DNA of 58,031 bases, from positions 230,978 through 289,008 of the forward strand of contig NZ_JH719942.1 in assembly GCF_000275825.1 (NCBI RefSeq), written 5' to 3'. This stretch comes from Saprospira grandis DSM 2844 (lineage in GTDB: Bacteria; Bacteroidota; Bacteroidia; Chitinophagales; Saprospiraceae). Below the pieces are notes generated by a model, which was not told where the DNA came from, searched no databases, and was given only the letters and a program-made list of their open reading frames with translations. Shown in pieces: positions 1 through 58,031 of the stretch (its first letter is position 1; every line of letters starts with the position of its first letter). A program made the translations under genes and the position numbers.

Positions 1-96
1 AGCGGCAGACCTAGCCAGCTTGCTGGCGCAGGGCCGAGCAGACCTGCGAGCCCTGCAAGGGCCCGGCCGCCGCAGGCGGCAGGCCCCAAAAAAGAT
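1..96 (-). repeat. Dispersed structured intergenic repeat (family A), minus orientation, cut by window edge
   Basis: Read on the minus strand this begins with a T-run and GGGGCCTG, then a GC stem (CCGCC/GGCGG), the core GGGCTCGCAGG..TCGGCCCT, a second stem (GCCAGC/GCTGGC), and GGTCTG. The same order of blocks recurs over twenty times in the window; this copy is closest to those at 23562 and 57462. Its outer end lies outside the window. Confidence 0.85.
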
Positions 97-137
97 AAAA
101 AACTGGCTATCATCGTCGAAATGTAAGCGAAACCGCA

Positions 138-275
138 ATGATTTGGCTCAAGCACTTTTTCTCTGAACGGCTCTCTTCGCTCAGCTTTAAGATGGAGAAG
201 CAAGAAGTGCTGATGCGTATTCAAATTTTAAATGAGTTTAATGCTATCAAGCTAGAAGTTGCTAATAGTCAGTAA
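138..275 (+). CDS. Short 45-residue ORF, probably a gene remnant
   Basis: An ATG-initiated 45-codon frame ending in residues EVANSQ. Its last 26 codons, and about 25 bases past the stop, closely match the minus-strand segment 21339-21422. Either this is a real small protein or both copies are 3' remnants of one gene. The charged helical tail (EKQEVLMRIQILNEF) gives no function. It lies directly upstream of the lipoprotein at 305. Confidence 0.3.
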   Translation: MIWLKHFFSERLSSLSFKMEKQEVLMRIQILNEFNAIKLEVANSQ

Positions 276-304
276 ATTACGATTTATACAACAAGGCTGC
301 AAAG

Positions 305-826
305 ATGATAAAAATGAATAATTGTATATTATTATATACATTGCTTCTGACTTTTATTAGTTGTACTAATAAAAGTGTTTTAGATAGGGGGAATGATTTA
401 TTGAAGGTTGAAAACGATGTAGACTCACTATCTGAGAATTTAGAGTTTGAAAATCCATTTATTAAAAGTTTTCGATGGGACCCAAAAGATAGTAAAGGAG
501 TACAAATATGGTTTACTGACAAAAAAGTATGTTACTTACTTTCAGTTCACTGTCTATATATGTTCCCTGTTGTTTATCATGATAATGAGGCGATTATGTA
601 TTGGGAGGGGGAAATGGATTGTCGATATGATGCAAAATTAAAAAATAGTTTTGGAGGCGTAAAAGCCCCTGAAGTCGGAAGTGCTTTTGCAAAATATACC
701 TTAGTTGAGAATGATGTTATTCGTGTTGAATATTATTTTTCAGAGTGGGTAAGCGCTTATATTGAGTCTGAAAGTGACGAGCAGTACATACACTTTCCAG
801 ATACTTTTTATTATCAAATAAATTAA
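305..826 (+). CDS. Hypothetical lipoprotein (173 aa)
   Basis: A hydrophobic leader of about 19 residues ends in the lipobox-like FISC, so the mature protein should start at the Cys near position 20 and be lipid-anchored. I recognise no domain. The mature part is acidic with several aromatic residues. The gene is AT-rich compared with the housekeeping genes further right. It is followed 40 bp later by a second small lipoprotein gene of similar size, so the two are probably co-transcribed. Possibly an accessory or immunity-type protein; function unknown. Confidence 0.7.
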   Translation: MIKMNNCILLYTLLLTFISCTNKSVLDRGNDLLKVENDVDSLSENLEFENPFIKSFRWDPKDSKGVQIWFTDKKVCYLLSVHCLYMFPVVYHDNEAIMYWEGEMDCRYDAKLKNSFGGVKAPEVGSAFAKYTLVENDVIRVEYYFSEWVSAYIESESDEQYIHFPDTFYYQIN

Positions 827-866
827 AGGAAACTTCTGTGCCTCAAACAAATAAAAGGAAATAGAG

Positions 867-1352
867 ATGATGAAACTTTGTATAGGATTGCCCCTTATCA
901 TATTGATTTTTGCTTGCTCTTCTACTAAAGAATTGAGTATAGTTAACGAAGATAAATTAAGCAAAAATTTATCAGATAGCTGTATCTTTAAAGTTGATTT
1001 TCAGGCTGGATTTCTTAACGAAACAGTTGCGTTGAGTTTTTTGGATACCCTAGGCGAAAAAGTAAAAATCTTTGAACTAGATAGTGTCGAAACATGGAAT
1101 AGCAACCTTACATCTCTTCAACTAAGCTGCTTTTACAAGGATGGAGAAAAATACTTTTATATTAGAGGCAAGGAGTTGCCTATTATCATTTCTGCAGAAA
1201 AATTTAGGTGGAGTCAATTTTTTTTCCACATAAATAACAAGCCTTTTCGACTTTTGATTGAAGGAGAAGATAAGTACTATGGCATAAATTATTACAAGGA
1301 TAAGGAGTCTGTTTATGTAATATCTCATGATTCTCCATTCACTTATTGGTAA
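867..1352 (+). CDS. Hypothetical lipoprotein (161 aa)
   Basis: The N-terminus MMKLCIGLPLIILIFACSS is a typical lipoprotein signal with cleavage before Cys17. No domain is recognised; the mature part looks beta-rich with many aromatic residues. An alternative start one codon downstream (second Met) is equally likely. Same strand and composition as the gene at 305. Function unknown. Confidence 0.7.
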   Translation: MMKLCIGLPLIILIFACSSTKELSIVNEDKLSKNLSDSCIFKVDFQAGFLNETVALSFLDTLGEKVKIFELDSVETWNSNLTSLQLSCFYKDGEKYFYIRGKELPIIISAEKFRWSQFFFHINNKPFRLLIEGEDKYYGINYYKDKESVYVISHDSPFTYW

Positions 1353-1425
1353 GGCTTTTTGCCCCGCTCTAAAATAAAGAACCTTCTAAACAAAACATGC
1401 TCTATAAGTCAGGCGAAGTGTATAG

Positions 1426-1578
1426 ATGGTTATTAAATTTGTGGGAAAAGATATAGCTAGCCCTTTAATAAGCGAGGAAGCCCGAATGGCACTCATTGCT
1501 AGGAGTCCAGAATCTAAAGGTATCCTTCAAATTGCTCAATCTGAAAAAGCCCCTTTTGGGGCAAAAATTAGAATATAA
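1426..1578 (+). CDS. Possible 50-residue ORF, perhaps a gene fragment
   Basis: An ATG frame of 50 codons sits in the 264-bp gap between two larger genes. It contains a plausible helical segment (SEEARMALIARS) and ends in GAKIRI. There is no clear ribosome binding site and no recognised family. It could be the tail of a lost gene. Nothing else is visible in this gap. Confidence 0.25.
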   Translation: MVIKFVGKDIASPLISEEARMALIARSPESKGILQIAQSEKAPFGAKIRI

Positions 1579-1616
1579 GAATAGCAGATTTTAGTTTAGG
1601 GGAGGCGGAGCAATCT

Positions 1617-2084
1617 ATGTATATAAAACTAAAGAAATATTTATTGATCTATGCTCAAAGTGTTCGATGCTTTGAATTTGCAATGATAAACAAGTATACT
1701 ATAAAAGGTCAGCCGTATTTTTTTAAAAAATTATTTCCGTTAAAAGGAGTAATTTTCATCTCGGACCAAGCTGTATATTACAACTATCATGGTGCAGGCT
1801 GTAGTCTGAAGTTTCCTAACTTTGATTTAGACTATAATGTAGTAGGAGCAGGAGATGGCGATTTGTATATATCCCTCTGGAGCTTTAAAGAGTTTTATAG
1901 GGCTCAAGAATCAATTGCGGAGGATATTCCATTGGCCAAAATGCTTGCTTGTTTAGATCTTTTTGTACAGAATGGGGTGTTAGCATGCCATGCTGAAAAT
2001 GGCCTTAGAAGCTATTTTTTTGCCAAAAATTGGCTGCATGAAAATGCGATAAGCATCAGTATACTGCTAAATAAAATGAACTGA
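1617..2084 (+). CDS. Hypothetical protein, possibly immunity-like (155 aa)
   Basis: A soluble protein with no signal peptide. The segment YNYHGAGCSLKF followed by an acidic/aromatic stretch and a late Trp-rich segment (KNWLHEN) is reminiscent of small HGxGC-type proteins (DUF6896) that often sit in toxin-immunity clusters; this is from memory and weak. A purine-rich GGGGAGGCGGAG precedes the start, although the first Met may not be the true one (Met23 is an alternative). A second small soluble gene follows after 15 bp. Confidence 0.6.
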   Translation: MYIKLKKYLLIYAQSVRCFEFAMINKYTIKGQPYFFKKLFPLKGVIFISDQAVYYNYHGAGCSLKFPNFDLDYNVVGAGDGDLYISLWSFKEFYRAQESIAEDIPLAKMLACLDLFVQNGVLACHAENGLRSYFFAKNWLHENAISISILLNKMN

Positions 2085-2099
2085 TGAAAATTAAGTTAG

Positions 2100-2657
2100 A
2101 TGTTTAAAACGAAAAATAGTAAATATATTGATAAATTAAAGAGGTCTCAAAATGCATTTATTGATTTACAGAAGGATGTTTTTTGGGTTGATGGGAGGCC
2201 AAGTTTTTTAATTAAAATAATAAATATACTTGTTGCCAAAGGGGATTTAGAAGCATTGTATTTTTTTAAGTCAAAGATTTCACTAAAAATTCTAAATAAT
2301 GTCCAGAGTAAAAATCAAAAGGAGTGTACTCTTCTGCAAAAAGCATGTTTCTATGCGGTGAAAGAGAATGATAATTGTGGGCTGCGATTGAAAATTGTTC
2401 AAGTCCTTCTGGAAGAAGGTTTGTCTAAAGTGAGTATAAAATGCACAGACCCTATTGTAATCGCAGCTTCTCATCGCAACATTGAATTGTTGGATATTTT
2501 AGTGAAATTTGGATTAGACTTAAACAAGCTTTGGAAGCCGTCGATTTGGTTTAGGGTGTCACCAAAAATTTTAAAGCATTTAGAAGAAAATAGTTCTAAT
2601 GTTCCTCAAGAGGTGGTAGACTATTTAAGAGCGCTAGCTGATGATTTAGAAAAATGA
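2100..2657 (+). CDS. Ankyrin-repeat-like protein (185 aa)
   Basis: Soluble. Residues about 40-145 show two or three degenerate ankyrin-like helix pairs (for example VIAASHRNIELLDILVKFGLDLNK, given here as a motif pattern: A-A..N-x-E-L-L-D-I-L-V-x-x-G-x-D-x-N). Such proteins often bind other proteins; in accessory clusters they can be immunity proteins. Starts 15 bp after the preceding gene, same strand. Converges on the speE 3' end. Confidence 0.6.
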   Translation: MFKTKNSKYIDKLKRSQNAFIDLQKDVFWVDGRPSFLIKIINILVAKGDLEALYFFKSKISLKILNNVQSKNQKECTLLQKACFYAVKENDNCGLRLKIVQVLLEEGLSKVSIKCTDPIVIAASHRNIELLDILVKFGLDLNKLWKPSIWFRVSPKILKHLEENSSNVPQEVVDYLRALADDLEK

Positions 2658-2722
2658 CCCCGCTAGTAGATGGTTTTATTTATAGTTGGGGCCTCCGCAG
2701 TGGCTTGGCCGCCCATTTGGAC

Positions 2723-2760
2723 CAAAAAAAGCGCAGCCTTCCCAATGGAAAGACTGCGCT
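2723..2760 (-). terminator. Rho-independent terminator of speDE
   Basis: On the minus strand, AGCGCAGTCTTTCC pairs with GGGAAGGCTGCGC around a 3-nt loop and is followed by a run of seven T. It lies 24-61 bp past the speE stop codon, in the right orientation to end that transcript. Confidence 0.85.
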
Positions 2761-2783
2761 CCTAATTTATTAAGGCCTAACCC

Positions 2784-3145
2784 TTATTTCAACATCTTAC
2801 GGACAAAGGGAGGCAAAGCAAAAGCGGCCTGATGTACAGCGCCATCATAGTAATTCAAGTCATGCTTTTCAGAAAAAGCATTGGCCGCCGCCTGATCGAG
2901 CTGAGGCAATTTGGCCTGCCCATCTTTGCTGGCCATGGTAAAGCTCCAAGTTCCTGTAGGATAAGTGGGGATTTGCGCCAAGTATACCTCTACCGCCTCA
3001 GCACCAAAAATGTCCTTTAGGCAGTGATTGAGCTCAACAAAGGCTTTTTGGTGAAAATGAGGGCTTTCGCTCTGCAATACCAAAATACCATCCTTTTTAA
3101 GGGCTTTTTGGGCATTTTTGTAAAAGGCCTCAGAGAAAAGTCCCT
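2784..3145 (-). pseudogene. speE: 3' fragment of speE
   Basis: About 120 codons (GLFSEAFYKN ... FVRKMLK) of the spermidine synthase C-terminus, including VYLAQIPTYPTGTWSF, the conserved stretch before the C-terminal helix. A longer open frame up to 3218 only adds sequence from the insertion element, so this is not an independent gene. Followed by its original terminator at 2723-2760. Confidence 0.9.
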
Positions 3146-3233
3146 TGCCCTTACCCCCAAAATTAGGACAGTAGTTTAAGGTGGAAAAATGAAAGAAAAA
3201 AGTCGTATAATGAAGCACTAAATTACAAAAGAG

Positions 3234-3521
3234 ATGAGAAAGAAACGTCGTAATTTCAGTTCTAAATTTAAGGCAAAAGTAGCCTTAGAAGCGCTAAAAG
3301 ATCAATTGACCTTGGCAGAATTAGCGACAAAATACGAGCTACATGCAAATCAAATATCGGCCTGGAAGAAAGAGCTTTTAGCCAATAGTTTTTTGCTTTA
3401 TGAAAAAAAGCGAGGCCCCAAAGTGGATGCTGATGAAGAAAAAGAAGCCCGTTTATATGAGCAAATAGGCAAGTTGCAGTTTGAGCTGGACTGGCTTAAA
3501 AAAAAATATAGGGGAATGTGA
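3234..3521 (+). CDS. IS3-family OrfA (helix-turn-helix transposase subunit)
   Basis: 95 residues: an HTH_Tnp_1-type domain (RRNFSSKFKAKVALEAL ... LAELATKYELHANQISAWKKELL) followed by a leucine-rich coiled coil (EKEARLYEQIGKLQFELDWLKKK), which in this family binds the element ends and mediates oligomerisation. The frame runs through the A9 tract at 3498-3506, where a -1 ribosomal slip would join it to OrfB as the OrfAB transposase. Preceded by AAAAGAGATGAGA. Intact. Confidence 0.9.
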   Translation: MRKKRRNFSSKFKAKVALEALKDQLTLAELATKYELHANQISAWKKELLANSFLLYEKKRGPKVDADEEKEARLYEQIGKLQFELDWLKKKYRGM

Positions 3522-4349
3522 TGAAGCGTTAAGACTGAGCCAAATAGCAGTATTAGAAGGACTTAGCATAGCTCGGCAATGTGAGTTAATGTCTGTTTCC
3601 CGATCAAAATACTATTATCAAGCAGTGGGCGAAAGTGCAGAAACTTAAAGTTGATGCGTAAAATTGATGAGTTTCACCTGTCACATCCAGAGTGGGGCTA
3701 CCCTAGGATGACCGAGTATTTAAGGGCCTCAGGCTTGATTTGCAACAGAAAACGAGTTGCTCGCTTGATGAAAAAGATGAATATTCGATCTGTTTTACCC
3801 AAGCCAAACACCTCATTATCAGCCAAAAGTCATAAGAAATACCCTTATTTACTTCGAGGCCTAAAAGTGAGCCGTTCAAATGAAGTTTGGGCAACTGACA
3901 TTACTTATATTCCTATGCAAGCGGGTTTTATGTACTTAACCGTTGTCATGGATTGGTATAGTCGATATGTTTTGAGCTGGCGGATTTCGAACAGCATGGA
4001 TAAGCGTTTTTGTCTAGAAGCTCTGGACGAAGCTTGGAAATGGGGGCAGCCTGAAATATTTAATTCCGATCAAGGCGCCCAATTTACTTCTCTAGAATTT
4101 ACGTCTGAGTTGCTCAACAGAGGAATTAAGATCAGTATGGATGGAAAAGGCCGAGCCTTAGATAATGTGTTTGTAGAAAGATTATGGTGGTCCGTAAAAT
4201 ATGAGCATATTTATTTGAGAGCTTATGAAAATGGTTTAGATTTACACAACGGACTTAAAGAGTATTTTAATTATTATAACAATCACAGGCTTCATAGTTC
4301 TTTAGGATATAAAACTCCTCAAGATATTTTTCTTCAGCATCTTCTCTAG
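3520..4349 (+). pseudogene. IS3-family OrfB (DDE integrase), frameshifted
   Basis: The -1 frame continues from the A9 slip site (ECDEALRLSQ ... SRSKYYYQAVGESAET) and hits TAA at 3646-3648. The match to the family resumes at 3651 in another frame (LMRKIDEFHLSHPEWGYPRM). Adding one T in ACTTAAAG restores the expected ETLKLMRKID, so a 1-bp deletion, or a sequencing error, has broken the gene. The catalytic core is otherwise complete: WATDITYIP (first Asp), NSDQGAQFTS (second Asp) and NVFVERLWWSVKYEHIY (Glu, 35 residues after the second Asp), then the HRLHSSLGYKTP end. Confidence 0.88.
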
Positions 4350-5584: not shown

Positions 5585-5705
5585 TGAGCGCAGGTAAACT
5601 GGCCCCTATTGGCCGCAGGCCAAAACGGCCACAACAAGCCCTTTAGGGCGCAGTTCGACGACCAAAGGGAGTAACCGCCTGCCCTAGGCAGGAGGCCCAT
5701 CATTA
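5585..5705 (-). repeat. Dispersed repeat, TTACTCCC-module variant (minus)
   Basis: On the minus strand: hairpin CCTGCC/GGCAGG, then GGTTACTCCC, GTCGTCGAACTGCG, the palindromic GCCCTAAAGGGC, TTGTGGCC and GGCCTGCGGCC. The same GGTTACTCCC..TCGTCGAACTGCG module is found at 21001, 24655, 25560 and 57890. This copy lacks the GGGCTCGC core. It occupies most of the gap between speDE and the kinase gene. Confidence 0.7.
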
Positions 5706-14900: not shown

Positions 14901-15069
14901 TAGACGAATTTCTGCTTCATGCGCCTAGAGAGATGCTCTAGGCGCTTGTTGGTCCAAGACGGCCGCTAAACGCTAGTTTAGCTAGCTGCTGATTATGCAA
15001 ATACAGCCAAAACAGCCGCATCTTGTTTATTTGCAGTTGCAGAATAAAGAGAAACAGTTGTTTAGCGTC

Positions 15070-15326
15070 AATCTGCAGTTGCAAAACGTCTCTGGCGTGA
15101 CGCCAGAGCTAATCTGCAGTTGCAAAACGCCTCTGGCGTGGCGCCAGCCTCAATCTGCATTTGCAAAACGCCTCTGGCGTCACGCCAGCCTTAATCTGCA
15201 TTTGCAAAACGCCTCTGGCGTGACGCCAGCCTCAATCTGCAGTTGCAAAACGCCTCTGGCGTGACGCCAGCCTCAATCTGCATTTGCAAAACGCCTCTGG
15301 CGTGACGCCAGAGCTAATCTGCAGTT
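15070..15326 (+). repeat. 41-bp tandem repeat array with a central palindrome (six full units)
   Basis: AATCTGCA begins at 15070, 15111, 15152, 15193, 15234, 15275 and 15316: exactly 41 bp each time. Each unit contains AATCTGCA(G/T)TTGCAAAACG followed by the palindrome CTGGCGT-n-ACGCCAG; one palindrome carries GGCGCC in one arm and another has its centre base flipped. 41 is not a multiple of three and the frame holds no conserved protein, so it is not coding. Units differ at only a few positions. It lies about 320 bp upstream of the MBOAT gene, in an otherwise gene-free kilobase. Confidence 0.9.
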
Positions 15327-15427
15327 TACAAATCCCTCCGGGCGTATCTATAATCTCCTATCTTTTTTTTCTGGACTGACCCTACTACAGTTTAGGGATA
15401 GGCGCTTAGCAGCAAAATATTAGCCTA

Positions 15428-21000: not shown

Positions 21001-21128
21001 GGCCTAGCGATCTGCGCAGCCCGCGCAGGGCCGAGCGAGCAGCGAGCCCCGGAACGACAACAAGGACTTTAGTCCGCAGTTCGACGACCAACGGGAGTAA
21101 CCGCCCGCCGAAGGCGGGAGGCCCCAAA
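21001..21128 (-). repeat. Composite dispersed repeat: family A core plus TTACTCCC module (minus)
   Basis: On the minus strand: TTTTGGGGCCTCCCGCC, its stem, then GGTTACTCCCGTTGGTCGTCG, AACTGCGGACTAAAGTCC, TTGTTGTC, and only then the GGGCTCGC..TCGGCCCT core. Nearly identical to 25640-25785, showing the module is inserted between stem 1 and the core. Confidence 0.85.
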
Positions 21129-23561: not shown

Positions 23562-23720
23562 TTTTTTGGGGCCTGCCGCCTGCGGCGGCCGGGCCCTTAC
23601 AGGGCTCGCAGGTCTGCTCGGCCCTGCGCCAGCAAGCTGGCTGGGTCTGGCCTGACGACCACCCTTTCAGGCCCCTAGGCCAAGTCGCTTCGCTCCTTTG
23701 CGGCGGCTTCGCCGCCTGCT
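23562..23720 (+). repeat. Dispersed structured intergenic repeat, family A (plus)
   Basis: TTTTTTTGGGGCCTGCC, stem CCGCC/GGCGG, core AGGGCTCGCAGGTCTGCTCGG, stem GCCAGC/GCTGGC, GGTCTGGCC, and a GGCCCCTAGGCC end, followed by the hairpin GGCGGC/GCCGCC. Almost the same as the copies at 27330 and 57462. Confidence 0.85.
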
Positions 23721-24655
23721 AGCTGTGGCTGCAGGTTGAAAACCAGCAGCCATACAACAACCCCATTCTACATCTATAGTGCGGAGAGGATTAAAATCCT
23801 CTACCGCTTTGAACAAGGGTTGTTTTTCTCCCCCATAAATTTCATAGGAACCCTAGGGCCAAGGCCCTAGGCTATCGAAAAAAACGCCATCCCCTCATTC
23901 GAGGGGATTTTCTGTTTCACTAGGCTCCATCAGCAAACAAGGGCTTTAGCCCGCCAGTTTGCATAGACCCGCAACCATGGGCTTCAGCCCATGGGCCCAA
24001 AATAACTCCACACTAAAATTCAGGAATGAAAACGATTACTATTATTTCTGCCCTGGGCTGAAGCCCAGGGTTGTAGACTTGAGCGAACTAGCGGACTAAA
24101 GTCCTTGTTCGCTTTTTCTACTTATAGCTTTCCATTAAGCTTCGGCCCAAAGCTACCCAGCCACTAAAAGACACTTTCTTTATCTCTCCTTTTTCACCCC
24201 CCAGAAAAAGTTGAGGGACTAATATTAAAATCTTGTGTGCGCCTCTTTTGCTGCCTAGGGCCAAGGCCCTAGGCTATCGAAAAAAACGCCATCCCCTCAT
24301 TCGAGGGGATTTTCTGTTCCACTAGGCTCCATCAGCAAAAAAGGGCTAAATATACCTGTAGGTTAAAACCCACAGCAACAAAAGCGGCCATACTAAGCAC
24401 AATAAAATGAGCCGAAGGTTAAAACCATCGGCTCATAATGAGTTGTAATAAACAGCAAACAAGGGCTTTAGCCCGCTAGTTTGCATAGCCCCACAACCAT
24501 GGGCTGAAGCCCATAGGCCCAAAACTGCCCAGCCGCCGAAGAAGAAAGCACGGACTGAAAAATGTTTATTTATGGAGGGTTTTAACCCTCCATTGAACAC
24601 AAAAATGCATTCGTTAATTGGCTGTAGGTTTCAACCTACAGTCCATATAGCAGGC
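23720..24655. repeat. Non-coding block of short hairpins and direct repeats
   Basis: No gene is visible. 23852-23937 and 24254-24339 are an 86-bp direct repeat with one difference; each holds two perfect hairpins (CCTAGGGCC/GGCCCTAGG and ATCCCCTC/GAGGGGAT). 23931-24002 and 24463-24534 are a second direct repeat, with hairpins GGGCTTTAGCCC and CATGGGCTTCAGCCCATG (CATGGGCTGAAGCCCATA in copy 2). GGTTnnAACC hairpins occur at about 23727, 24355, 24420, 24580 and 24620. The segment looks like serial insertion of short palindromic elements. Confidence 0.75.
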
Positions 24656-25560: not shown

Positions 25561-25785
25561 TGCGTCTAGAAGGAGCGAAGCGACTGGCCTAGCGATGTGC
25601 AGGGGTGGCCGAAGGCCAGACCCAGCGGGCGCAGCCCGCGCAGGGCCGAGCGAGCAGCGAGCCCCGACAACCAGCCTCGAAGAGGCGCCAGTTCGACGAA
25701 GTAAACGACAACAAGGACTTTAGTCCGCAGTTCGACGACCAACGGGAGTAACCGCCCGCCGAAGGCGGGAGGCCCCAACGGCAAA
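25560..25785 (-). repeat. Composite dispersed repeat: family A core plus TTACTCCC module (minus)
   Basis: Same block order as at 21001, with an extra GTCGTTTACTTCGTCGAACTGG segment, a near-duplicate of the TTACTCCC module, between the module and the core. The module therefore appears twice here. Ends GGCGGGAGGCCCC on the plus strand. Confidence 0.8.
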
Positions 25786-27329: not shown

Positions 27330-27485
27330 GGCCTGCCGCCAAAGGCGGCCGGGCCCTTGCAGGGCTCGCAGGTCTGCTCGGCCCTGCGCCAGCAAGCTGG
27401 CTGGGTCTGCCGCTGCGCGGCACCCTTTCAGGCCCCTAGGCCAGTCGCTTCGCTCCTTTGCGGCGGCTTCGCCGCCTGCTCGCTG
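27330..27485 (+). repeat. Dispersed structured intergenic repeat, family A (plus)
   Basis: TTTTTTGGGGCCTGCC, stem CCGCC/GGCGG with loop AAA, core CAGGGCTCGCAGGTCTGCTCGG, stem GCCAGC/GCTGGC, GGTCTGCCGC, GGCCCCTAGGCC end and the hairpin GGCGGC/GCCGCC. It begins immediately upstream of the truncated Rhs gene. 27485-27700 holds GGTTGAAACC and CTTAAAAG hairpins only. Confidence 0.85.
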
Positions 27486-33900: not shown

Positions 33901-36900
33901 TGATGTAGGCTGTACAGATACGATTTCAGTCCGTATTCAAGAACCAGCCCCCTTAAGCGCTGGCATTAGTATCGACCAAGACTATAATGGTAGTCCCATC
34001 TCTTGCTTTGGAGTCGCTGATGCAGCCCTTAGTGCAACAGTAACTGGGGGAACGGCCAACTATAACTACAACTGGAGCACAGGAGCAAGCAGCAATAGCC
34101 TCAACGGATTGGCAGCAGGGAGTTATAGCCTTACGGTTAGCGACCAGAATGGCTGCCAAGACAGCAGCCGCATTAACCTACAAGCCCCCGACTCTATTCA
34201 GCTGAATATAGATACCCTTAGCTTCTATAATGGCTATACAGTATCTTGTGCTTCAGCAACAGACGGACAACTAGAAGCCAGTTATAGTGGCGGCTGGGGC
34301 AGCCTTCAAGGCCAATGGAGCAATGGCAGTAGCCAAGCCCTACAAAACAGCCTAGCTGCAGGCAATTATTGCTTTAGCCTGACCGATATCAATGGCTGTC
34401 AGGCGAGTAGCTGTGTCTTGCTTACGGCCCCCGACACCCTACTACTAGATAGTGTACAACAACAAAACATCATCTGTGCAGGCCAACAGAATGGCGAATT
34501 AAGCATCTTTATGCAAGGCGGTTTGCCTCCCTACAGCTACCTTTGGTCCAATGGCCAAAGCAGTAGCCATATTAGTAACTTGGCAGCCGGAAACTACCAG
34601 CTTACAGTCACCGATGCCAACGGCTGTAACTGGCTAGGCAACTGGAGTATTACAGAGCCTACAGCTTTGGTCCTACAACTAGATGCCGACTCTGTCCGCT
34701 GTAATGGCGGAGCAGACGGAAGTATCTCTGCCCTAGTGAGTGGAGGCATTGCGCCTTATAGCTATCTTTGGTCCAATGGCCAAAGCAGTAGTAGTATCAA
34801 CAACCTAGCAGCAGGCCCCTACCAACTTACGGTCACCGATGCCTATGGCTGTAGTATTGTTGCTTCGGCCCTTGTACAAGAGCCAGCCAATGCCGTTATT
34901 GCCAATGTATTGAGCAGCCAAAATCCAAGTTGTGACCAAGGAACAGATGGTTGGATCGATGCCGATGCCCAAGGGGGAACCCCCAACTACAGTTTCCTTT
35001 GGTCTACAGGAGATACAACAGAGGACCTCCAACAATTGGCGGCAGGGAGCTATAGCCTTACCGCTACCGATGCTCGGGGCTGTCAGGCCACAACGAGCAT
35101 ACAACTGATTGCCCCCTCGGCTATACAGCCCAGTATTAGTGTATATAGTAATTATCATGGGGCCAGTATTAGCTGTGCAGGCGCTAGTGATGGGGCCCTT
35201 ACCGCCCAAGCGCAGGGCGGAACCGCCCCTTACCTCATCAGTTGGTCTACTGGCGAGAATACGGCCCTAATTCAGAATCTCTCTGCAGGCTGGTATACGG
35301 TTAGCTTTAGTGATGCCAATGGCTGTACCGCTGTTGATAGTATAGAACTTACAGCGCCTTTGGCCCTTGCAGCCCAACAAACAGTTAGTGCGGCTAGCTG
35401 TGCCAATAGCTGCGATGGACAAATTGTCTATCAAGCAGTAGCAGGCACCGGAACCCTAGGCCAAAATGGCTATGAATACCGCCTTTTGGGCCCCAACCAA
35501 AACGGCCAGCTCTTTGGCCCCAATAACAACTGGAGCAACCTCTGCGCAGGCTGGTATGTCGTTCAGTTGAGAGATGGAAACGGTTGCCAAATTCAAGATA
35601 GCATAGAGATTACGGCACCTGCCCCCCTACAACTACAGCTTAGCTCAAATGACCCTAGTTGCTTTAATGGCAACGATGGAAGCCTAACGGCTTTAGCCAC
35701 AGGCGGAACAGCTCCCTATACTTACCTTTGGTCCAATGGACAAACAACAGCTACGGCCACTAACTTATCCGCAGGAAGTTATAGCCTGAGCCTAACTGAT
35801 GCCAATGGCTGTAGTTTGGTCCAAACAACTAGCTTACATAGCCCTTTTCCCCTAGCCATCAACTTTCAAGTAGATTCGGCCAGTTGTGCGGGCAGTAGCG
35901 ATGGGGCCATTTTAGCTATTGCAACTGGCGGAACTGCCCCCTATAGCTACCTTTGGTCCAATGGCCAAATGGGCCGGCAAGCCCGAGGCTTAACCGCAGG
36001 CAACTACCAATTGACGATTAACGATGCCCAAGGCTGCCCCTTTACAGCAAGTACTACAGTAGAAGAACCTAGCCCCTTGCAAATTCAATTGCAGAGCAGC
36101 AATCCCAACTGCCAAGGACAAAACTCTGGAACGGCCACAGTGGTCGCTACAGGCGGAACTGCCCCCTATACTTACCTTTGGTCCAATGGACAAACAACAG
36201 CTACCGCCACTAACCTAGCGGCTGGCAGCTATCAATTGATTGTAACCGACGCCAAGGGCTGTCAGCAGAATGCTAGCGTTCAATTGAGCCAAGCCACCGG
36301 CTTGGGCCTAGCCATTAACCAACTGCAGGCGCCTAGCTGCCATAATGCAGCCGATGGGAAACTAGAAGCGGTAGTAGTGGGCGGAACAGCCCCCTACCAA
36401 TATAACTGGTCTAATGGCAGCAGTACCGCCAATGCCAATAACTTGGCGGCGGGCTGGTATAGCCTGACGGTTAGCGATGCTGGCGGCTGTCAGCTGGTCG
36501 ATAGTTTTGAACTTTTGGCTCCCGCCGCCCTACAGCTAAGCCTGAGCAGTCAGGCAGCGGGCTGTTTGCAGGGAGCAGATGGAGAAGCTACTGCTAGCGT
36601 ACAAGGCGGAACCCTTCCCTACAGCTTCCTTTGGTCCAATGGCGCCCAAACGCAGCAAGTGACAGGCTTGGCCGCAGGCAACTACCAACTTACCGTTACC
36701 GATGCTAATGGTTGTAGCGTTCTGGGCCAAGTGGTTGTTGATGAGCCAGCTAGCGGCTTGGTAGGCTATATCAATGTACAAGATGCGCTTTGCCAAAATG
36801 GAGCATCAGGCCAACTTACAGCCATTATTAGTGGAGGTACCCCCTTGGCCAATGGCGACTACAGTTATAGTTGGTCCAATGGAGGCAGTACGGCTATTCT

Positions 36901-38458
36901 CTCTAATCTTAGCGCTGGAAACTATAGCCTTACGGCTAGCGATGCCAATGGTTGTACCCTGAGTCTAAGCGCCCAAGTGGACGAGCCCACGGCCATACAA
37001 CTGACCTTAGTGAGTAGCCAAGATCCTCGCTGTGCAGGCGAGCTAACTGGCCAAGCCCAACTACAGGCTAGCGGCGGAACTTCGCCCTTGAGCTATCAGT
37101 GGTCCGATGGACAAACTGCTCCCACGGCCCAAAACTTAGGGGCAGGAAGCTATAGCGTGACCGTAACGGATAGACATGGATGTACAGCTGATTTATCGGT
37201 CCAAATTATAGATCCAGCTCCGCTACAACTGAATATGCAATTGAATATGCCCGCCTGTGCTGGAGGCGATGATGGCAGCATTAGCTATCAATCTTCTTCG
37301 GTTCCCATCAATGCCTTTCTTTGGTCCAATGGCCAAGTTGGCCAGCCTTTGACGGGCTTGGCTTCGGGGATTTATAATTTGACGGTGGTGGATCAAAATG
37401 GTTGTAGTTCGGACTTCCAATATGTTTTGGGTGGACCGCCTGCTTTGGGCCTGAGCCTCAAGCCGCAAAGCAATATTCGCTGTGCAGGAGAGCTAAGCGC
37501 TAGTGTAGAAGCCTTGGCGAGCTCGGGCACTGCCCCCTACAACTATCTTTGGTCCAATGGCGATACCCAATCTTTGGCCCAAAACCTAGGGGCGGCTTGG
37601 TATGCCGTGACCGCCACCGATGCCAATGGTTGCCAGCAAACAGACAGCATTCAGTTTGTGGATCCCGCTCCGCTGGAGCTATCGGCAGAGGTTGATTCTG
37701 TGCGCTGTTTGGGCCAAAGCAATGGAAGTATCTTGGCCTTGGCTCAGGGTGGTTCTACTGCATTGGGCGGCTATAGTTACAGTTTAGATAGTATAAATTG
37801 GCAGGCTTCGCCTTTCTTCCCGAACTTGGCGGCTTCTGATTATAGCATTTACCTAAGAGATGCCAACGATTGTGTGGCCGATACTTTGGTGGCGGTAGAA
37901 GCGGGCTTGCCCTTCTTCTTACAGCAATTTGGTCCCAATGATACGACCTTGGTCTATGGCGACAGTTTGTTGCTTTATGCCTTGCTCAATGATAGTTTGG
38001 GGGTTAGCTTCAGTTGGAGCGAAAGCCTGAACAATCAATTATTGAGCGATAGCAGTTATCAGCTATGGGTGCAGCCTTTTGATCGGGCGATTTATGAATT
38101 TGTGGCCCAAAATGAGCGCGGTTGTCGCTTAGACAGCAGCATTACGGTCTTTATTGACAAGCAGCGGATTGCGGCAGCCCCCAATGCCTTTACCCCAAAT
38201 AATGATGGGGCCAATGATCGCTTCTTTATTCAGGGCGATGAGCGCCTGCAGCTGGTCAAACTCTTTAGGGTTTATGACCGTTGGGGCGAGTTGGTCTTTG
38301 AGGGCCAAAACCTAGCCCCCAATGATCCACAGGCGGGTTGGGATGGCCAATTTAAGGGCCGACCGATGAACTCTGGGGTTTATGCTTGGTATGCCGAACT
38401 AGAATTTATAGATGGCCATATTTTGGTCTTAAAGGGCAGCATTCAGCTCTTGCGATAA
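27941..38458 (+). CDS. Giant secreted SprB-repeat adhesin with T9SS type B sorting domain (3505 aa)
   Basis: A signal peptide (MRHIYLFGLLFLCGWSLQAQ) leads into a unique region (~20-155), then eight tandem domains of about 150 residues (~158-1380), each running ICNA..LG .. FC(A).. EP.P .. VWFSF.AP .. D.QLA.Y .. SC.G.L .. C L.PG.TYF..VDG .. F.LE, plus two divergent ones to ~1690. Residues ~1690-3320 are about twenty SprB-type repeats (GGTAPYTYLWSNGQ ... L.AG.Y.LTVTDANGC). The last ~90 residues (APNAFTPNNDGANDRF ... VYDRWGELVFEG ... WDGQFKGRPMNSGVY) are the CHU/gliding-type C-terminal domain that directs type IX secretion. SprB in flavobacteria is the mobile gliding adhesin; a surface adhesion role is inferred. 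Single gene, own terminator. Confidence 0.95.
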   Translation: MRHIYLFGLLFLCGWSLQAQVRLEVIINSGTAGTSCTDGIFGGSPDPQWRVNVESQGWTTYPQSGACFTDAPNRQYDEEFICATDYPANIQLCFRAFEDDGAACVVDQTCLAQICQNFATPAPGTSLNYSLSIPNCCGNSSWGQVDFTIRATGSFVNAGQAYDQICNAINLGTLNSNSSIGDNGLSNYGNFCATNTLEPSPWGNANEQGVWFQFTTGPNPSASLRFEAISDPQNLGDGIDLQLALYESSNGSCNGALSLVAEDYQGAGALYDEEMSVECLQPNTTYFLLVDGEDSGIPFTDGGQGYFGLEIFDLGVQQSADSICAASHLGPVPTGGQVQTNALSQSNLCASNANEPVPGNWSNEQGVWFSFEAPASGHVIIEANSDQPAPFGTDAVDLQLALYSSSTNNCTGSLSEIASDYDPTGFGEELDVRCLEAGRIYYVMVDGSTLNIDGIFDLEVRDGGIPPAPNDEICNAIALGAPAPGSSVGLTDQNNYCADNLFEPIPNNWGNDRGVWYTFVAPPSGKVEIRAENQSFFGSDQIDLQLVVYDAANQSCTDPLTEIQSEHEGIGVLWDEDMEVECLTPGRTYFLMVDGEGALFDPDLQEGIFDLEVYGDPRDPPATNDDPCNAIYLGDPTGGQIGTSPGPQHGSQNNFCATGAGEPNPGAFNPNQTVWYTFTAPASGNVEIELSSDDPLNGVDPIDLQVAVWEAASCTGSWREMNSGDDLVVFDLDLEVYCLNPGQIYYVQVNGADLAILDPEEGYFDITITEIPPIPVAPNNLICNAIPLGDPFTNGPQSIMNQHNLCADAIGDPNPDDFDADQTVWYSFTTPATGGPYAVDISATTSTPFSSQDAIDIQLAVFESSNNSCTGILSEIESDYDPGFFDEDMDVQCLDAGKTYFIMVDGSFLDVQGYFDLTISQAPSVPIPTNDLICNAEALGAVPIGGSINNNINYSNFCAETEPGEPSPFNIEQTVWFSFQAPTHAGASASSEVSIRLESDPNNQGNGVDLQLAVYRSSNGSCTGNLQLLEEGVDNPTLSFDAEVNLTCLLPGETYWVQVDGSLIDVEGYFTIEIEDDGAGAFPANDNICNATPLGAVPNGGSINNNISYNNYCATVEPNEPNPSAFAADETVWFSFEAPTSGNISISLESDPANLGDNPNLQLALWYSPGGTCAGPWLEMGSDYDPLLNDESMSITCLVPGATYYLQVDGQEDYFGVEEGYFTIEIEDDGGSTTFPYNNNICDAYDFGLPTGSFATLGNETNECANVELGEPGLGGYAEHTVWYQFTAPPSGRVEVEVESNDPIFGIDPEVYIFGSSSNSCTGQLSLSDGSNLPTAIITENVEATCLTPGNIYFIQVDGEGLNREGEFSIRVRDMEPLFGTGQPNDPEPINNYCQNAINLPVQSESCTNGSGSWNSYNYGVPTASQATSCGQNCGETWYSFTMPTSGVALVEGNDDGISSSSPIGDFSDLVVVAYTGGCGNLQQIACGSGGLSGDVGFEIAAPPGSQVLLQVFNDGGDDDNENFELCISEGCGADNCLNAIAYPIQPNVPYCFNTASATGEGVAGGAPGYFECGEGDDPEHSLYYYFVSDCNGSAVTLSIINATSSGNCIGGTVPGDGFNISFFQDSSPCDNNPDVLVDCQSFNSCMTQPINWSFTYNNLQPNTPYIVQIDGGFNFLGGSNNGTFMIQTTTSPVAMPTATPSGCGSNNGTATATTVGGTPPFSFQWSNGAVDSIITNLSPGWYTVTVTSSGPGGCSAIDSVFVDSTNALGLQLASQRDESCLASCDGSATVLPLSGLAINYNYLWDAAAGSQTTATASGLCAGSYSVTVSSNNGCQDSMTVQIGSPSPVQATLVNGSLPQCPGLCDGSAAITATGGSISTDYYYQWSHGDSTSLVTNLCAGNYNVTISDRNGCYDTLQLNIPVPPSPIQISLLANQDLSCAGDSSGAFSLTAAGGQAPYTYIMAGDSNQTGQFSALAAGNYLVQVIDDVGCTDTISVRIQEPAPLSAGISIDQDYNGSPISCFGVADAALSATVTGGTANYNYNWSTGASSNSLNGLAAGSYSLTVSDQNGCQDSSRINLQAPDSIQLNIDTLSFYNGYTVSCASATDGQLEASYSGGWGSLQGQWSNGSSQALQNSLAAGNYCFSLTDINGCQASSCVLLTAPDTLLLDSVQQQNIICAGQQNGELSIFMQGGLPPYSYLWSNGQSSSHISNLAAGNYQLTVTDANGCNWLGNWSITEPTALVLQLDADSVRCNGGADGSISALVSGGIAPYSYLWSNGQSSSSINNLAAGPYQLTVTDAYGCSIVASALVQEPANAVIANVLSSQNPSCDQGTDGWIDADAQGGTPNYSFLWSTGDTTEDLQQLAAGSYSLTATDARGCQATTSIQLIAPSAIQPSISVYSNYHGASISCAGASDGALTAQAQGGTAPYLISWSTGENTALIQNLSAGWYTVSFSDANGCTAVDSIELTAPLALAAQQTVSAASCANSCDGQIVYQAVAGTGTLGQNGYEYRLLGPNQNGQLFGPNNNWSNLCAGWYVVQLRDGNGCQIQDSIEITAPAPLQLQLSSNDPSCFNGNDGSLTALATGGTAPYTYLWSNGQTTATATNLSAGSYSLSLTDANGCSLVQTTSLHSPFPLAINFQVDSASCAGSSDGAILAIATGGTAPYSYLWSNGQMGRQARGLTAGNYQLTINDAQGCPFTASTTVEEPSPLQIQLQSSNPNCQGQNSGTATVVATGGTAPYTYLWSNGQTTATATNLAAGSYQLIVTDAKGCQQNASVQLSQATGLGLAINQLQAPSCHNAADGKLEAVVVGGTAPYQYNWSNGSSTANANNLAAGWYSLTVSDAGGCQLVDSFELLAPAALQLSLSSQAAGCLQGADGEATASVQGGTLPYSFLWSNGAQTQQVTGLAAGNYQLTVTDANGCSVLGQVVVDEPASGLVGYINVQDALCQNGASGQLTAIISGGTPLANGDYSYSWSNGGSTAILSNLSAGNYSLTASDANGCTLSLSAQVDEPTAIQLTLVSSQDPRCAGELTGQAQLQASGGTSPLSYQWSDGQTAPTAQNLGAGSYSVTVTDRHGCTADLSVQIIDPAPLQLNMQLNMPACAGGDDGSISYQSSSVPINAFLWSNGQVGQPLTGLASGIYNLTVVDQNGCSSDFQYVLGGPPALGLSLKPQSNIRCAGELSASVEALASSGTAPYNYLWSNGDTQSLAQNLGAAWYAVTATDANGCQQTDSIQFVDPAPLELSAEVDSVRCLGQSNGSILALAQGGSTALGGYSYSLDSINWQASPFFPNLAASDYSIYLRDANDCVADTLVAVEAGLPFFLQQFGPNDTTLVYGDSLLLYALLNDSLGVSFSWSESLNNQLLSDSSYQLWVQPFDRAIYEFVAQNERGCRLDSSITVFIDKQRIAAAPNAFTPNNDGANDRFFIQGDERLQLVKLFRVYDRWGELVFEGQNLAPNDPQAGWDGQFKGRPMNSGVYAWYAELEFIDGHILVLKGSIQLLR

Positions 38459-38699: not shown

Positions 38700-38826
38700 A
38701 ATCGGCCTAGGGGCCTGAAGGGGGGGCCGAAGGCCAGACCAAAGGCGAAACGAAGTGAAGCCTGAAGGGCCGAGCAGACCTGCGAGCCCCGCAAGGGCCC
38801 GGCCGCCGAAGGCGGCAGGCCCCTAA
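38700..38826 (-). repeat. Dispersed structured intergenic repeat, family A (minus)
   Basis: Minus copy: core AGGGCCGAGCAGACCTGCGAGC, stems GGCCGAAGGCC, AGGCGAAACGAAGTGAAGCCT and CCGCC/GGCGG, ending GGCCCCTAAAAAA. Inverted partner of the copy at 38494. The 75 bp between them hold only short GC palindromes (GGCGGCC/GGCCGCC). Confidence 0.85.
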
Positions 38827-46268: not shown

Positions 46269-46442
46269 CTTTTTTTGGGGCTGCCCCGGCCTTTGGCCGG
46301 GTCGGGCTCTGCCGTGGCTCGCAGGTCTGCTCGGCCCTGCAGTTTTTTCGCTGCGCTTCAAAAACTTGGGTCTGCGGCTGCGCCGCCCCACTTTCCATCC
46401 CTCAGCCGCGTCGCTGCGCTCCTTTGCGGGCGCTTTGCGCCC
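46269..46442 (+). repeat. Dispersed structured intergenic repeat, family A (plus)
   Basis: TTTTTTTGGGGCTG, stem CCCGGCC/GGCCGGG, core GTGGCTCGCAGGTCTGCTCGG, stem AGTTTTTTCG..CAAAAACT, GGTCTG, stem GCGGC-TGC-GCCGC and CATCCCTCAGCC. Confidence 0.85.
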
Positions 46443-46761: not shown

Positions 46762-46988
46762 AAAAGGAGCGAAGCGACGCGGCTGAGGGATGGTAGGGGG
46801 TGGCCGAAGGCCAGACCGAGCTTTTTTGAGCAAAGCGAAAAAAGCGATGGGCCGAGCGAGCAGCGAGCCCCCGCACAGCCCGACCCGCCCAAGAACTCAT
46901 GAGGGTTTTAACCCTCATTTTGTATAAGTTCGCAAAGCGATACCGCTTTGCGCTGGGTTTCAAGCCGGCGGAAGGGGCAGCCCCAAAA
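46762..46988 (-). repeat. Dispersed structured intergenic repeat, family A (minus), carrying a nested GGTTnnAACC hairpin
   Basis: Minus copy with stems GGCCGAAGGCC, GCTTTTTT/AAAAAAGC, core GGGCCGAGCGAGCAGCGAGCCC and a GGGGCAGCCCCAAAAAAA end. Stem 1, normally ~20 bp, is replaced by an ~90-bp insert with hairpins CATGAGGGTT/AACCCTCAT and GCAAAGCG/CGCTTTGC. Inverted partner of the copy at 46269. Confidence 0.8.
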
Positions 46989-51603: not shown

Positions 51604-51686
51604 TAGGCCGATACTGTAGGTTGAAACCTACAGTAAAAGCGGTATTGCTTCGCAATGATATATACATGAGGGTTAAAACCCTCATG
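51604..51686 (+). repeat. Three-hairpin element with GGTTnnAACC loops, copy 2
   Basis: Hairpins CTGTAGGTT/AACCTACAG, ATTGC-TTC-GCAAT and CATGAGGGTT/AACCCTCATG. Compared with 41571-41654 the first stem is intact here but has A-to-C in the loop there, and the third stem keeps pairing better here. The rest of the gap to 51767 has no gene. Confidence 0.75.
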
Positions 51687-55747: not shown

Positions 55748-55866
55748 AGGCGCATTGTTTTACAGCTGTTTTTTTGTTGCTTTTATGATAGTTTCCTATT
55801 TTCCGAACAACTTTTAACAAAGGGTTAAGCCAATGTTAAGGAGTTGATTAGGGGACTAATTAAATT

Positions 55867-55905
55867 GCCTCTAATTTATTGAATAATAATAAATTAGAGG
55901 CTTTT
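55867..55905 (+). terminator. Rho-independent terminator
   Basis: GCCTCTAATTTATT pairs perfectly with AATAAATTAGAGGC (14 bp) around a 7-nt loop, followed by TTTT. It lies 120 bp after the DAHP synthase stop and about 60 bp before the transporter gene. An attenuator role for the latter is possible. Confidence 0.75.
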
Positions 55906-55958
55906 ACATTTTATTTACATTCACAGGAGGGGTTTCCCTCTTTTAGAGTCAAAGCAAC

Positions 55959-57401: not shown

Positions 57402-57426
57402 TCTCAATTTATTGAATTTCAGGATG

Positions 57427-57466
57427 CAGCTCCAAAGCAATTTTTTGTTTTGGGGCTGTTTTTTTT
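57427..57466 (+). terminator. Rho-independent terminator of the CNT gene
   Basis: CAGCTCCAAA pairs with TTTGGGGCTG (one mismatch), followed by eight T, which again merge into the start of a family A repeat. Confidence 0.8.
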
Positions 57467-57590
57467 GGGGCCTGCCGCCAAAGGCGGCCGGGCCCTTGCA
57501 GGGCTCGCAGGTCTGCTCGGCCCTGCGCCAGCAAGCTGGCTAGGTCTGCCGCTACGCGGCCCCCTTGCAGGCCCCTAGGCCGAATGGAAG
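57462..57590 (+). repeat. Dispersed structured intergenic repeat, family A (plus)
   Basis: TTTTTTGGGGCCTGCC, stem CCGCC-AAA-GGCGG, core CAGGGCTCGCAGGTCTGCTCGG, stem GCCAGC/GCTGGC, GGTCTGCCGC-TAC-GCGGC, GGCCCCTAGGCC. Confidence 0.85.
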
Positions 57591-57605
57591 TTCTGCGCTT
57601 CGGCC

Positions 57606-57711
57606 ATCCTTTGATAAAAATTTCAGGCTAGTCAAGGCATTTTTTAAAGGCATAGCCGTAGCTATGGCTGAGAAAAATAACGCAGAATAGCAAGAAATTA
57701 AAGCAAAGGAT
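57606..57711. repeat. 106-bp imperfect palindrome (MITE-like)
   Basis: The ends ATCCTTTG and CAAAGGAT are inverted repeats, and the exact centre (57658/57659) lies in the CATAGC-CGTA-GCTATG hairpin. The left and right arms keep similarity along most of their length (for example AAAAATTTC / GAAATTA, GGCATTTTTTAAAGG / CTGAGAAAAATAACGC). No coding potential. Confidence 0.8.
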
Positions 57712-57774
57712 AGAAGTGGCAGGGCTTTCATTTGGCCTTTGCCTGCGGCGGCTTCGCCGCCTGTAGGATGGATG

Positions 57775-57902
57775 TATATCCCAGTGGGTTAAAACCCACA
57801 GCAACAAAAGAGGCTATGCTAAACACAATAAAAATGAGCCGAAGGTTGAAACCATCGGCCCATAACTAGCAGGACTAATTTCCTGCGTCTAGAAGGAGCG
57901 AC
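57775..57902. repeat. GGTTnnAACC hairpin element
   Basis: Hairpins CAGTGGGTT/AACCCAC and GCCGAAGGTT/AACCATCGGC, separated by GCAACAAAAG..GCTA..CACAATAAAA. Matches 24350-24440 and 25495-25580. Confidence 0.7.
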
Positions 57903-58031
57903 TGGCCACAACAAGGCTGAAAGCCGCAGTTCGACGATCAACGGGAGTAACCGATGGTAGGCAGTGCGGCAAAGCCGCAGACCAAGCAAAAACTTGTTTT
58001 TTGCGCAGGGCCGAGCGACCCGACCAACGGG
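57903..58031 (-). repeat. Composite dispersed repeat (minus), cut by window edge
   Basis: Contains TGGCCACAACAAGG, CTGAAAG palindrome, CGCAGTTCGACGATCAACGG, GAGTAACCG, then GCGGCAAAGCCGC with AGACC, a TTTTTTG stem and the beginning of the GCAGGGCCGAGCG core. Confidence 0.75.

What the first reader, a model, noticed from the sequence alone, without database searches (positions are those of the whole stretch)
1..58031. Dispersed element with conserved blocks but covarying stems: a possible undescribed folded RNA or ssDNA element
About twenty copies of 130-180 bp lie in intergenic gaps. Constant blocks: a T-run with TTGGGGC, a core GGGCTCGC..TCTGCTCGGCCCT, GGTCTG, and an end C(T/A)(A/C)(G/A)GCC. 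Between them are three hairpins whose sequences differ between copies but stay self-complementary. Stem 1: CCGCC/GGCGG, CCCGCCC/GGGCGGG, CCCGGCC/GGCCGGG. Stem 2: GCCAGC/GCTGGC, CGGCC/GGCC, GCCGCC/GGCGGC, GCTTTTTT/AAAAAAGC. Stem 3: GGCC/GGCC, GCGGC/GCCGC, GGCGC/GCGCC. Compensatory change on this scale, with fixed single-stranded blocks, argues for selection on structure. Hypotheses: a non-autonomous mobile element, an RNA processing or transcript-end signal, or a template for a retron- or Y1-transposase-like enzyme.
Basis: partly seen in the sequence, partly recalled or inferred. Interest (0 to 1): 0.85.

Follow-up and report, generated by a model that had tools for sequence, protein, structure and literature searches.

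The report
Alternating folded repeats across Saprospira genomes
A marine bacterium carries over a thousand copies of a small element between its genes, which keep the same branched fold although the letters of their stems differ, and neighbouring copies mostly point in alternating directions; no matching known family was found here, and what the element does is not known.

Summary
The window is from a Saprospira chromosome and holds 22 covariance-model hits; the genome holds 939 type-A and 460 type-B cores, and other Saprospiraceae genera carry the element too.

A tree-aware test on copies from other genera gives 10 significant pairs of 5,671: 8 proposed, 2 on the P3 diagonal.

New: neighbours alternate in orientation (173/188; 34/40 in other genera, hand count). 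Between strains, DNA facing the T-run ends is about 10% unaligned, DNA facing the other ends about 35%. Most sites keep the element while helices or domains are swapped; one clear loss was seen. Orientation ignores gene direction.

Best reading: a paired, structure-recognised DNA element, broadly REPIN-like, without an identified enzyme. Function unproven; RNA and neutral readings remain open.

The parts
1..87 (-). element, cut by the window end
   Evidence: covariance model, 57.5 bits
9455..9589 (+). element, core type A
   Evidence: 88.6 bits
10955..11094 (-). element, core type A
   Evidence: 84.1 bits
14754..14881 (+). element, core type A
   Evidence: 104 bits
15422..15534 (-). element, core type A
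   Evidence: 93.3 bits
18639..18768 (+). element, core type A
   Evidence: 102.6 bits
20941..21107 (-). element, core type B, carrying an inserted ~50-nt module
   Evidence: 20.8 bits (E 0.046)
23568..23681 (+). element, core type A
   Evidence: 80.4 bits
25589..25706 (-). element, core type B
   Evidence: 61.1 bits
27328..27442 (+). element, core type A
   Evidence: 90.4 bits
27715..27829 (-). element, core type B, close inverted partner of 27328
   Evidence: 88.8 bits
38499..38611 (+). element, core type A
   Evidence: 98.3 bits; folds
38704..38823 (-). element, core type A, close inverted partner of 38499
   Evidence: 64.9 bits
41457..41576 (+). element, core type A
   Evidence: 67.9 bits
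42811..42936 (-). element, core type B
   Evidence: 81.9 bits
46277..46407 (+). element, core type A, used as example for the helices below
   Evidence: 105.4 bits; folds
46781..46915 (-). element, core type B, with its P2 region replaced by another hairpin module
   Evidence: 68.7 bits
49584..49704 (-). element, core type B (the one break of alternation in the window)
   Evidence: 81.8 bits
51492..51609 (+). element, core type A
   Evidence: 99.1 bits
54371..54485 (-). element, core type B
   Evidence: 85.1 bits
57467..57581 (+). element, core type A
   Evidence: 90.4 bits
57945..58031 (-). element, cut by the window end
   Evidence: 40.2 bits
46279..46283 (+). P1 5' arm (GGCTG), pairs with 46403-46407 (CAGCC)
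   Evidence: (P1 table), columns 3-7/152-156
46284..46301 (+). P2 hairpin
   Evidence: seen in sequence; folds
46314..46317 (+). P3b 5' arm (GTGG), pairs with 46388-46391 (CCAC)
   Evidence: columns 55-58/137-140
46317..46337 (+). core block (type A) with the small P4 hairpin
46338..46368 (+). P5 hairpin region
46369..46374 (+). GGTCTG block
   Evidence: invariant columns
46374..46386 (+). P6 hairpin
46388..46391 (+). P3b 3' arm
46403..46407 (+). P1 3' arm

Best explanation
This is a dispersed DNA element of about 115-140 nt found in several Saprospiraceae genera. SHOWN in two strain comparisons: DNA facing the T-run (5') ends is more stable than DNA facing the other (3') ends, and synteny breaks often fall at elements. 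INFERRED: the working form is a folded single DNA strand or extruded hairpin recognised by structure, and adjacent copies work as inverted pairs. Copies spread as pairs or by recombination between copies, which keeps the alternation, so that pairs bracket exchangeable DNA and leave gene blocks outside untouched. In that sense it works like a REPIN or transposon end pair, with the two ends often kilobases apart. No enzyme has been identified.
For: Structure. DNA rather than RNA: hardly any wobble (own copies: 1,060 Watson-Crick, 3 G.T, 5 A.C; other genera: 1,042, 17, 25), and orientation random to transcription (61 against 49 of 110 co-directional contexts, after leaving out 75 of 258 elements that overlap a called ORF; 17 against 14 on three plasmids). 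Alternation: 173/188, 103/127 and 106/129, 104/124, 34/40 in other genera (hand count). Inner versus outer: unaligned DNA 34.7% against 11.2% and 36.1% against 9.7%; synteny-block ends within 150 nt of an element 17/30 against 9.8% at random, with the conserved block on the outer side in 15 of 17 (G001 against G004; 13 of 15 and 10 of 13 in the two other runs). No outer interval without a called gene (0 of 105) against 25 of 104 inner intervals. Close inverted pairs are less alike than random pairs (39.7 against 48.8, n=32), as expected if long perfect hairpins in DNA are harmful.
Against: No clean empty site with both flanks intact was found, so neither a paired insertion nor a target duplication is shown. 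No enzyme tracks the element: Y1 transposase is absent from G018 and G054, which have hits, and reverse transcriptase occurs also where the element is absent. The strand preference of folding is stronger with RNA than with DNA parameters. Alternation is incomplete (81-92% in the large sets). Intervals between same-direction neighbours are as variable as inner ones (35.0% and 32.9% unaligned), so variability is not special to inner intervals alone. The outer/inner figures rest on two closely related strains over 400 kb; the synteny figures on 15 blocks covering about 89 kb; neither has an intergenic-only control. Elements facing on the outer side are only slightly more alike than random pairs (51.1 against 48.8; 53.6 against 48.3 in the smaller set), so nothing shows direct pairing of partners.
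Confidence: 0.4

Rival explanations
1. The element works as RNA: a branched structure in read-through transcripts (complement strand), shielding or punctuating messages, or giving small stable RNAs.
For: The complement strand folds into the covarying structure more often with RNA parameters (116/140) than with DNA parameters (102/140); fold conserved across genera with covariation like that of a structured RNA; copies sit between genes, near gene ends.
Against: Orientation is random to transcription: 61 against 49 of 110 co-directional contexts, 17 against 14. G.U pairs are almost absent and no commoner than the reverse mismatch. No clear promoter next to the copies: TAnnTTTG in the inner flank is nearly the same towards and away from the element (59 against 52).
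Confidence: 0.25
2. Selfish, now mostly immobile repeats (MITE or REPIN relics) without host function; the fold is kept by recombination between copies that swaps whole hairpins, and the alternation is inherited because recombination between copies preserves it.
For: Whole domains are swapped at fixed sites; the core type switches with a bias, 19 A-to-B against 2 B-to-A among 89 orthologous sites; direct-orientation neighbours are unusually alike (76.5 against 48.8, n=23), as duplication or local conversion would give; at one site (G001 359390) G002 has lost the element together with the inner DNA.
Against: Loss is rare: of 96 G001 elements with colinear flanks in G002, 89 still hold one; of the other 7, five keep the element's ends with another hairpin module inside, one looks like a false call in coding sequence and one is a real absence. 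Mismatches in stems are rare (23 of 1,083 cells in A1). Swaps of one arm of P3b alone should be common under pure conversion but were 1 of 8 differing sites, with 1 more where both arms changed with a mismatch.
Confidence: 0.2
3. A nucleoid-organising element: pairs are bound by an architectural protein or topoisomerase, like BIMEs but spaced over kilobases.
For: Alternation of orientation over 400-kb stretches and on the plasmids, independent of genes; REPs in BIMEs alternate in orientation and bind proteins (abstract and passages of PMC2817692).
Against: No protein known; it does not explain why inner DNA is exchanged and outer DNA is stable.
Confidence: 0.15

Closest known systems
REP elements, REPINs and BIMEs (with RAYT transposases)
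   Same: Extragenic, high copy number, palindromic, inverted pairs; alternating orientation in BIMEs (PMC2817692 passages); compensatory changes in the REPIN hairpin (PMC3116915 passage).
   Different: REPs are given as 20-40 bp (PMC3733652 abstract); here about 115-140 nt with six helices including long-range ones. Partners are often kilobases apart with genes between. The single Y1 gene of the own genome has its nearest core about 1.1 kb away within the 3.3-kb locus read, and Y1 does not track the element.
MITEs and other terminal-inverted-repeat transposon remnants
   Same: Inverted pairs with GGGGC outer ends; short gene-free pairs and longer pairs enclosing genes.
   Different: No clean empty site or target duplication found; complex internal fold; a transposase with these ends was not searched for.
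Integron attC sites
   Same: Recalled: folded single-strand sites with structure kept and sequence varied.
   Different: Alternating orientation here, not a same-direction array; branched fold; integrase not searched for.
Dispersed 100-160-nt repeats such as ERIC or bcr1 (recalled)
   Same: Intergenic, about the same length, predicted to fold.
   Different: Not compared by sequence; such extensive allelic swapping and genome-scale alternation are not something I recall for them.

Membership tests
REP/REPIN with RAYT | a RAYT (Y1) gene flanked by the repeats in carrier genomes | tested here: not met
   Own Y1 gene: nearest element core about 1.1 kb away in the locus read; G018 and G054 have element hits but no Y1 match
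REP/REPIN with RAYT | short (20-40 bp) palindrome | tested here: not met
   Element is about 115-140 nt with six helices; size range from the PMC3733652 abstract
REP/REPIN with RAYT | GTAG- or CGTC-type tag at one end | tested here: inconclusive
   No such block among the invariant columns of A1, but small hairpins ending in TGTAGG stand beside some copies and were not studied
REP/REPIN with RAYT | inverted pairing or alternating orientation | tested here: met
   173/188 adjacent pairs
MITE / TIR transposon | insertion polymorphism with target site duplication | tested here: inconclusive
   One real absence between strains, but the inner DNA differs too, so no duplication can be read; no other clean empty site
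MITE / TIR transposon | terminal inverted repeats shared with an autonomous element | not tested
   No search for a transposase with these ends was made
Rfam RNA families | match at or above a family's gathering score | tested here: not met
   0 matches in the window; no match near gathering in L183, L185, L186
structured RNA or ssDNA in general | significant covariation against a phylogeny-aware null | tested here: met
   (own script); independent genera
TnpB-associated omega-RNA | a TnpB protein in the genome | tested here: not met
   No match to PF07282 in the own genome
retron or reverse-transcriptase-linked element | RT confined to carriers of the element | tested here: not met
   RT also in G003 and G005, where the element was not found; linkage of RT to copies was not examined
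integron attC | integron integrase and same-direction cassette array | tested here: inconclusive
   Array direction not met (alternating); integrase not searched

The most novel reading that the evidence does not exclude
A previously undescribed layer of genome organisation: over a thousand folded-DNA elements laid in alternating orientation divide the chromosome and plasmid into two classes of interval, stable gene blocks on one side and exchangeable DNA on the other, maintained by an unidentified structure-specific machinery that also swaps helices between copies.
Probability: 0.3. Interest if true: 0.95.

Novelty: new variant of a known kind. Interest (0 to 1): 0.82.

Why it matters
Few bacterial repeats that I know of show a many-helix fold kept by covariation across more than a thousand copies in one genome, and I recall none whose copies alternate in direction over long chromosome stretches and a plasmid. 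If the alternation and the stable/exchangeable split are functional, they point to an unknown machine acting on folded DNA. If neutral, the family is still a large natural experiment in how recombination, hairpin formation and selection shape repeats, because the same site can be compared between strains with its stems changed. Either way it warns against taking covariation among repeat copies as proof of RNA function.

Tried and rejected
Panhandle model (5' and 3' flanks of a gene pairing): rejected, because inverted neighbours are hardly more alike than random pairs and close ones (<600 bp) are less alike. Transcription-unit model (one element at each end of every unit): not supported; outer segments with two or more genes are co-directional in 48 of 87 cases (22 of 43 and 26 of 44), elements are only slightly commoner at strand switches (73 of 237 switch gaps, 107 of 428 same-strand gaps), and orientation ignores gene direction. 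Intrinsic terminator: the T-run lies before the structure and not after it, so this was set aside by reasoning only. Promoter carrier: TAnnTTTG is enriched in the outer flank pointing away from the element (86 against 44), which places some promoters beside the element and not in it. Y1, RT and TnpB partners. Conserved element positions between Saprospira and the other genera could not be tested: 6 neighbour matches, none across an element. The five virus contigs with the core motif were not examined. Papers: no description of these repeats was met in searches (listings); the two Saprospira genome papers most likely to mention them are not held, so a description in print is not excluded.

Limits: element detection by core pattern misses copies whose core is replaced or carries an insert; counts of alternation are for detected copies only, and orthologous strains and plasmids are not independent of each other. 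Of 209 detected elements 115 could be parsed for the P1 table; of 89 G001/G002 orthologous pairs only 32 could be parsed for the helix table. Alignment A1 has 42 of the 45 non-redundant copies listed; I left three of the longer ones out. The covariance model has rough E-values, and in the family search only 58 candidates per genome were scored. The R-scape-like null is my own script, not R-scape. Alignment A2 was fitted to the model, which favours its pairs, and includes weak hits (E up to 0.5).
Full report
1. What and where. The window is G000:C2:230978-289008, part of a 4.42-Mb chromosome. An element of the window matches only plasmids of Saprospira in the plasmid collection (3 records), and the genome has a 56.6-kb plasmid contig. 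No Rfam family matches. The core pattern with up to two mismatches occurs 458 + 481 times in the genome, and its reversed control 0 times; a second core type occurs 241 + 219 times, control 0. Together that is roughly 1,400 copies.

2. P1 joins the two ends: with the 3' end set by an independent motif, 110 of 115 parsed copies (of 209 detected) have one of four perfectly complementary pairs of dinucleotides. RNAalifold finds P1, P3, P4, P5 and P6 without guidance, 17 of 29 pairs with both-side changes; it misses P2, whose length varies too much in that alignment. T at each of the three positions directly before GGGGC is 86-95% (330 copies).

3. Is the covariation real? On 56 copies from other genera aligned to a model trained only on own-genome copies, 27 of 29 pairs have both-side changes and the covariation score is 0.371 against 0.107 for shuffles and at most 0.061 for slid partners. 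A null that keeps the tree and the substitutions per branch gives, for these copies, 10 significant pairs of 5,671; 8 are proposed pairs (of 23 present) and the other two (columns 89-292 and 90-291) continue the P3 diagonal (column sum 381). For own-genome copies, 12 of 7,021 are significant, 9 proposed (of 29) and 11 within one column of one. So 15 of 23 and 20 of 29 proposed pairs are not significant on their own; many of these hardly vary.

4. Which strand?

5. DNA or RNA? Wobble pairs are rare and not commoner than the reverse mismatch on either strand (own copies: 3 G.T, 5 A.C beside 1,060 Watson-Crick; other genera: 17 and 25 beside 1,042). Orientation is random to transcription: between co-directional genes 61 against 49 (G001 and G002; 75 of 258 elements overlap a called ORF and were left out) and 17 against 14 (three annotated plasmids). 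Both speak for DNA; the larger strand contrast with RNA parameters speaks the other way.

6. Mostly fixed sites, changing stems. On four related plasmids most copies sit at the same sites (for example own against Lewin: 19 of 20 present, 1 unplaced), while stems, core type and inserted modules differ. The own plasmid is partly rearranged against the Lewin and WH plasmids. The sites called absent on the plasmids come down to six places: five still hold an element or its ends with other modules, and one, in the own plasmid at a rearrangement junction, holds none. Between G001 and G002 (aligned blocks mostly about 95-97% identical), of 128 G001 elements 32 lacked colinear flanks; of the other 96, 89 have an element (88 in the same orientation) and 7 were called absent. 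Of those 7, five keep the element's ends with another hairpin module inside (four, one), one looks like a false call in coding sequence, and one (G001 359390) is a real absence: the outer flank and a run of C and A remain, and element and inner DNA are gone. In the other direction 88 of 92 G002 elements with colinear flanks are present; three of the four absent ones show an element or its ends with inserts, and one lies in repeat-rich inner DNA that is not comparable. Core type switched at 21 of 89 sites, 19 one way and 2 the other. In 32 pairs parsed for helices, P3b was identical in 24, changed on both arms and fully paired in both strains in 6, changed on both arms with a mismatch in 1, and changed on one arm in 1. 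The sequences show that most or all of the region inside P1 is often replaced at once, so block exchange between copies explains much of the change, while one-armed exchanges that would break P3b are rare.

7. Alternating orientation. Adjacent detected copies point in opposite directions in 173 of 188 cases (window, 16 own stretches, four plasmids), 103 of 127 and 106 of 129 (first 400 kb of G001 and G002) and 104 of 124 (G004). In the window by the model it is 20 of 21 (hand count). In other genera, hand-counted at E up to 0.5: 29 of 34 in G041, 5 of 6 in G014 and G018. In G041 two pairs of model hits face each other closely on the outer side, with one weak member each. A point of logic: recombination between copies preserves an alternating order, so alternation may be inherited once established, but single insertions would break it.

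8. Two kinds of interval. Between G001 and G002, 34.7% and 36.1% of inner DNA is not colinearly aligned, against 11.2% and 9.7% of outer DNA; intervals between same-direction neighbours resemble the inner ones (35.0% and 32.9%). Ends of strain-specific segments lie within 170 nt of an element in 39% of cases against 11% at random (94 boundaries in G001). Between G001 and the more distant G004, 17 of 30 synteny-block ends lie within 150 nt of an element (9.8% at random), and in 15 of 17 the conserved block is on the outer side; the other two runs give 15/30 with 13 of 15 and 13/27 with 10 of 13 (only about 89 kb aligned). Of 35 inner intervals with the same flanking elements in both strains, 5 are marked as different cargo, but one of these was too short to compare, so 4 of 34; the clearest, G001 222611-226478 against G002 212150-213963, holds different genes and a transposase-like frame in one strain (distant relation of the genes was not tested). 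Every outer interval holds a called gene (0 of 105 empty), while 25 of 104 inner intervals do not. Intergenic insertions in general may share part of this bias; I did not have an intergenic-only control.

9. Distribution. In the genus 4 of 6 genomes have the core in hundreds of copies and two more distant ones have none, by pattern or model. In the family 13 of 61 sampled genomes have a model match, five of them a single one; G041, G018 and G014 have many (42 to 58 of 58 scored candidates). In the order, 2 of 40 (own and one weak match in the same family). So the element looks confined to Saprospiraceae in this sample.

10. Mechanism. The best reading is a paired, structure-recognised DNA element: folded complement strand, pairs in inverted orientation, inner DNA open to exchange, outer DNA more stable. 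The fold, strand, alternation, site stability, swapping and inner/outer contrast are shown within the limits above; the single-stranded DNA form, the pairing function and the machinery are inferred. Y1 transposases, reverse transcriptases and TnpB do not fit as the enzyme. It works broadly like REPINs, in which two inverted repeats and compensatory changes in the hairpin are reported (PMC3116915 passages), but it fails the RAYT and size criteria, so I do not file it as a REPIN.

11. Verdict. Function unproven.

Noticed in passing
24575-24590, 46901-46916, 51668-51683: A second hairpin family, GAGGGTT..AACCCTC, lies in the window (8 matches with up to 2 mismatches against 0.18 expected); with two partner hairpins it replaces the core domain at some orthologous sites.
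   Followed up: partly
5627-5701, 21053-21127, 25704-25778: A ~50-nt module (GTTACTCCC...TTGTTGTCG and complement) inserted into some elements at set positions and found elsewhere.
   Followed up: partly
L097 (G001 391711-393268) and L086 (G001 160927-162483): Two near-identical insertions with a 490-aa transposase-like frame, one inside an element with a 10-bp repeat at its ends and one just outside an element with a 12-bp repeat; insertion sequences may prefer the hairpins.
   Followed up: partly
27941-38458: A 3,505-codon open frame with about 225-nt internal repeats, likely a giant repetitive surface protein (inference from repeats only).
   Followed up: no
15023-15350: Tandem repeats with a 41-nt period between two elements.
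   Followed up: no
1-4000: Lower G+C (36-39%) than most of the window.
   Followed up: no
L178-L182: Five virus contigs in IMG/VR contain the core motif once each; not examined.
   Followed up: no
G001 vs G002, first 400 kb: Core type differs almost only one way (A in G001, B in G002: 19 of 21), suggesting drive in one lineage.
   Followed up: partly
alignment A1 columns 75/118: An invariant G.T position inside GGCC/GGTC (42 of 42); on the strand that folds this is A.C, so those blocks may not pair at all.
   Followed up: no
own plasmid near 27385 and 47772 (G000:C1): The own plasmid is rearranged against the Lewin and WH plasmids, with a junction at a site that holds an element in those strains.
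   Followed up: partly
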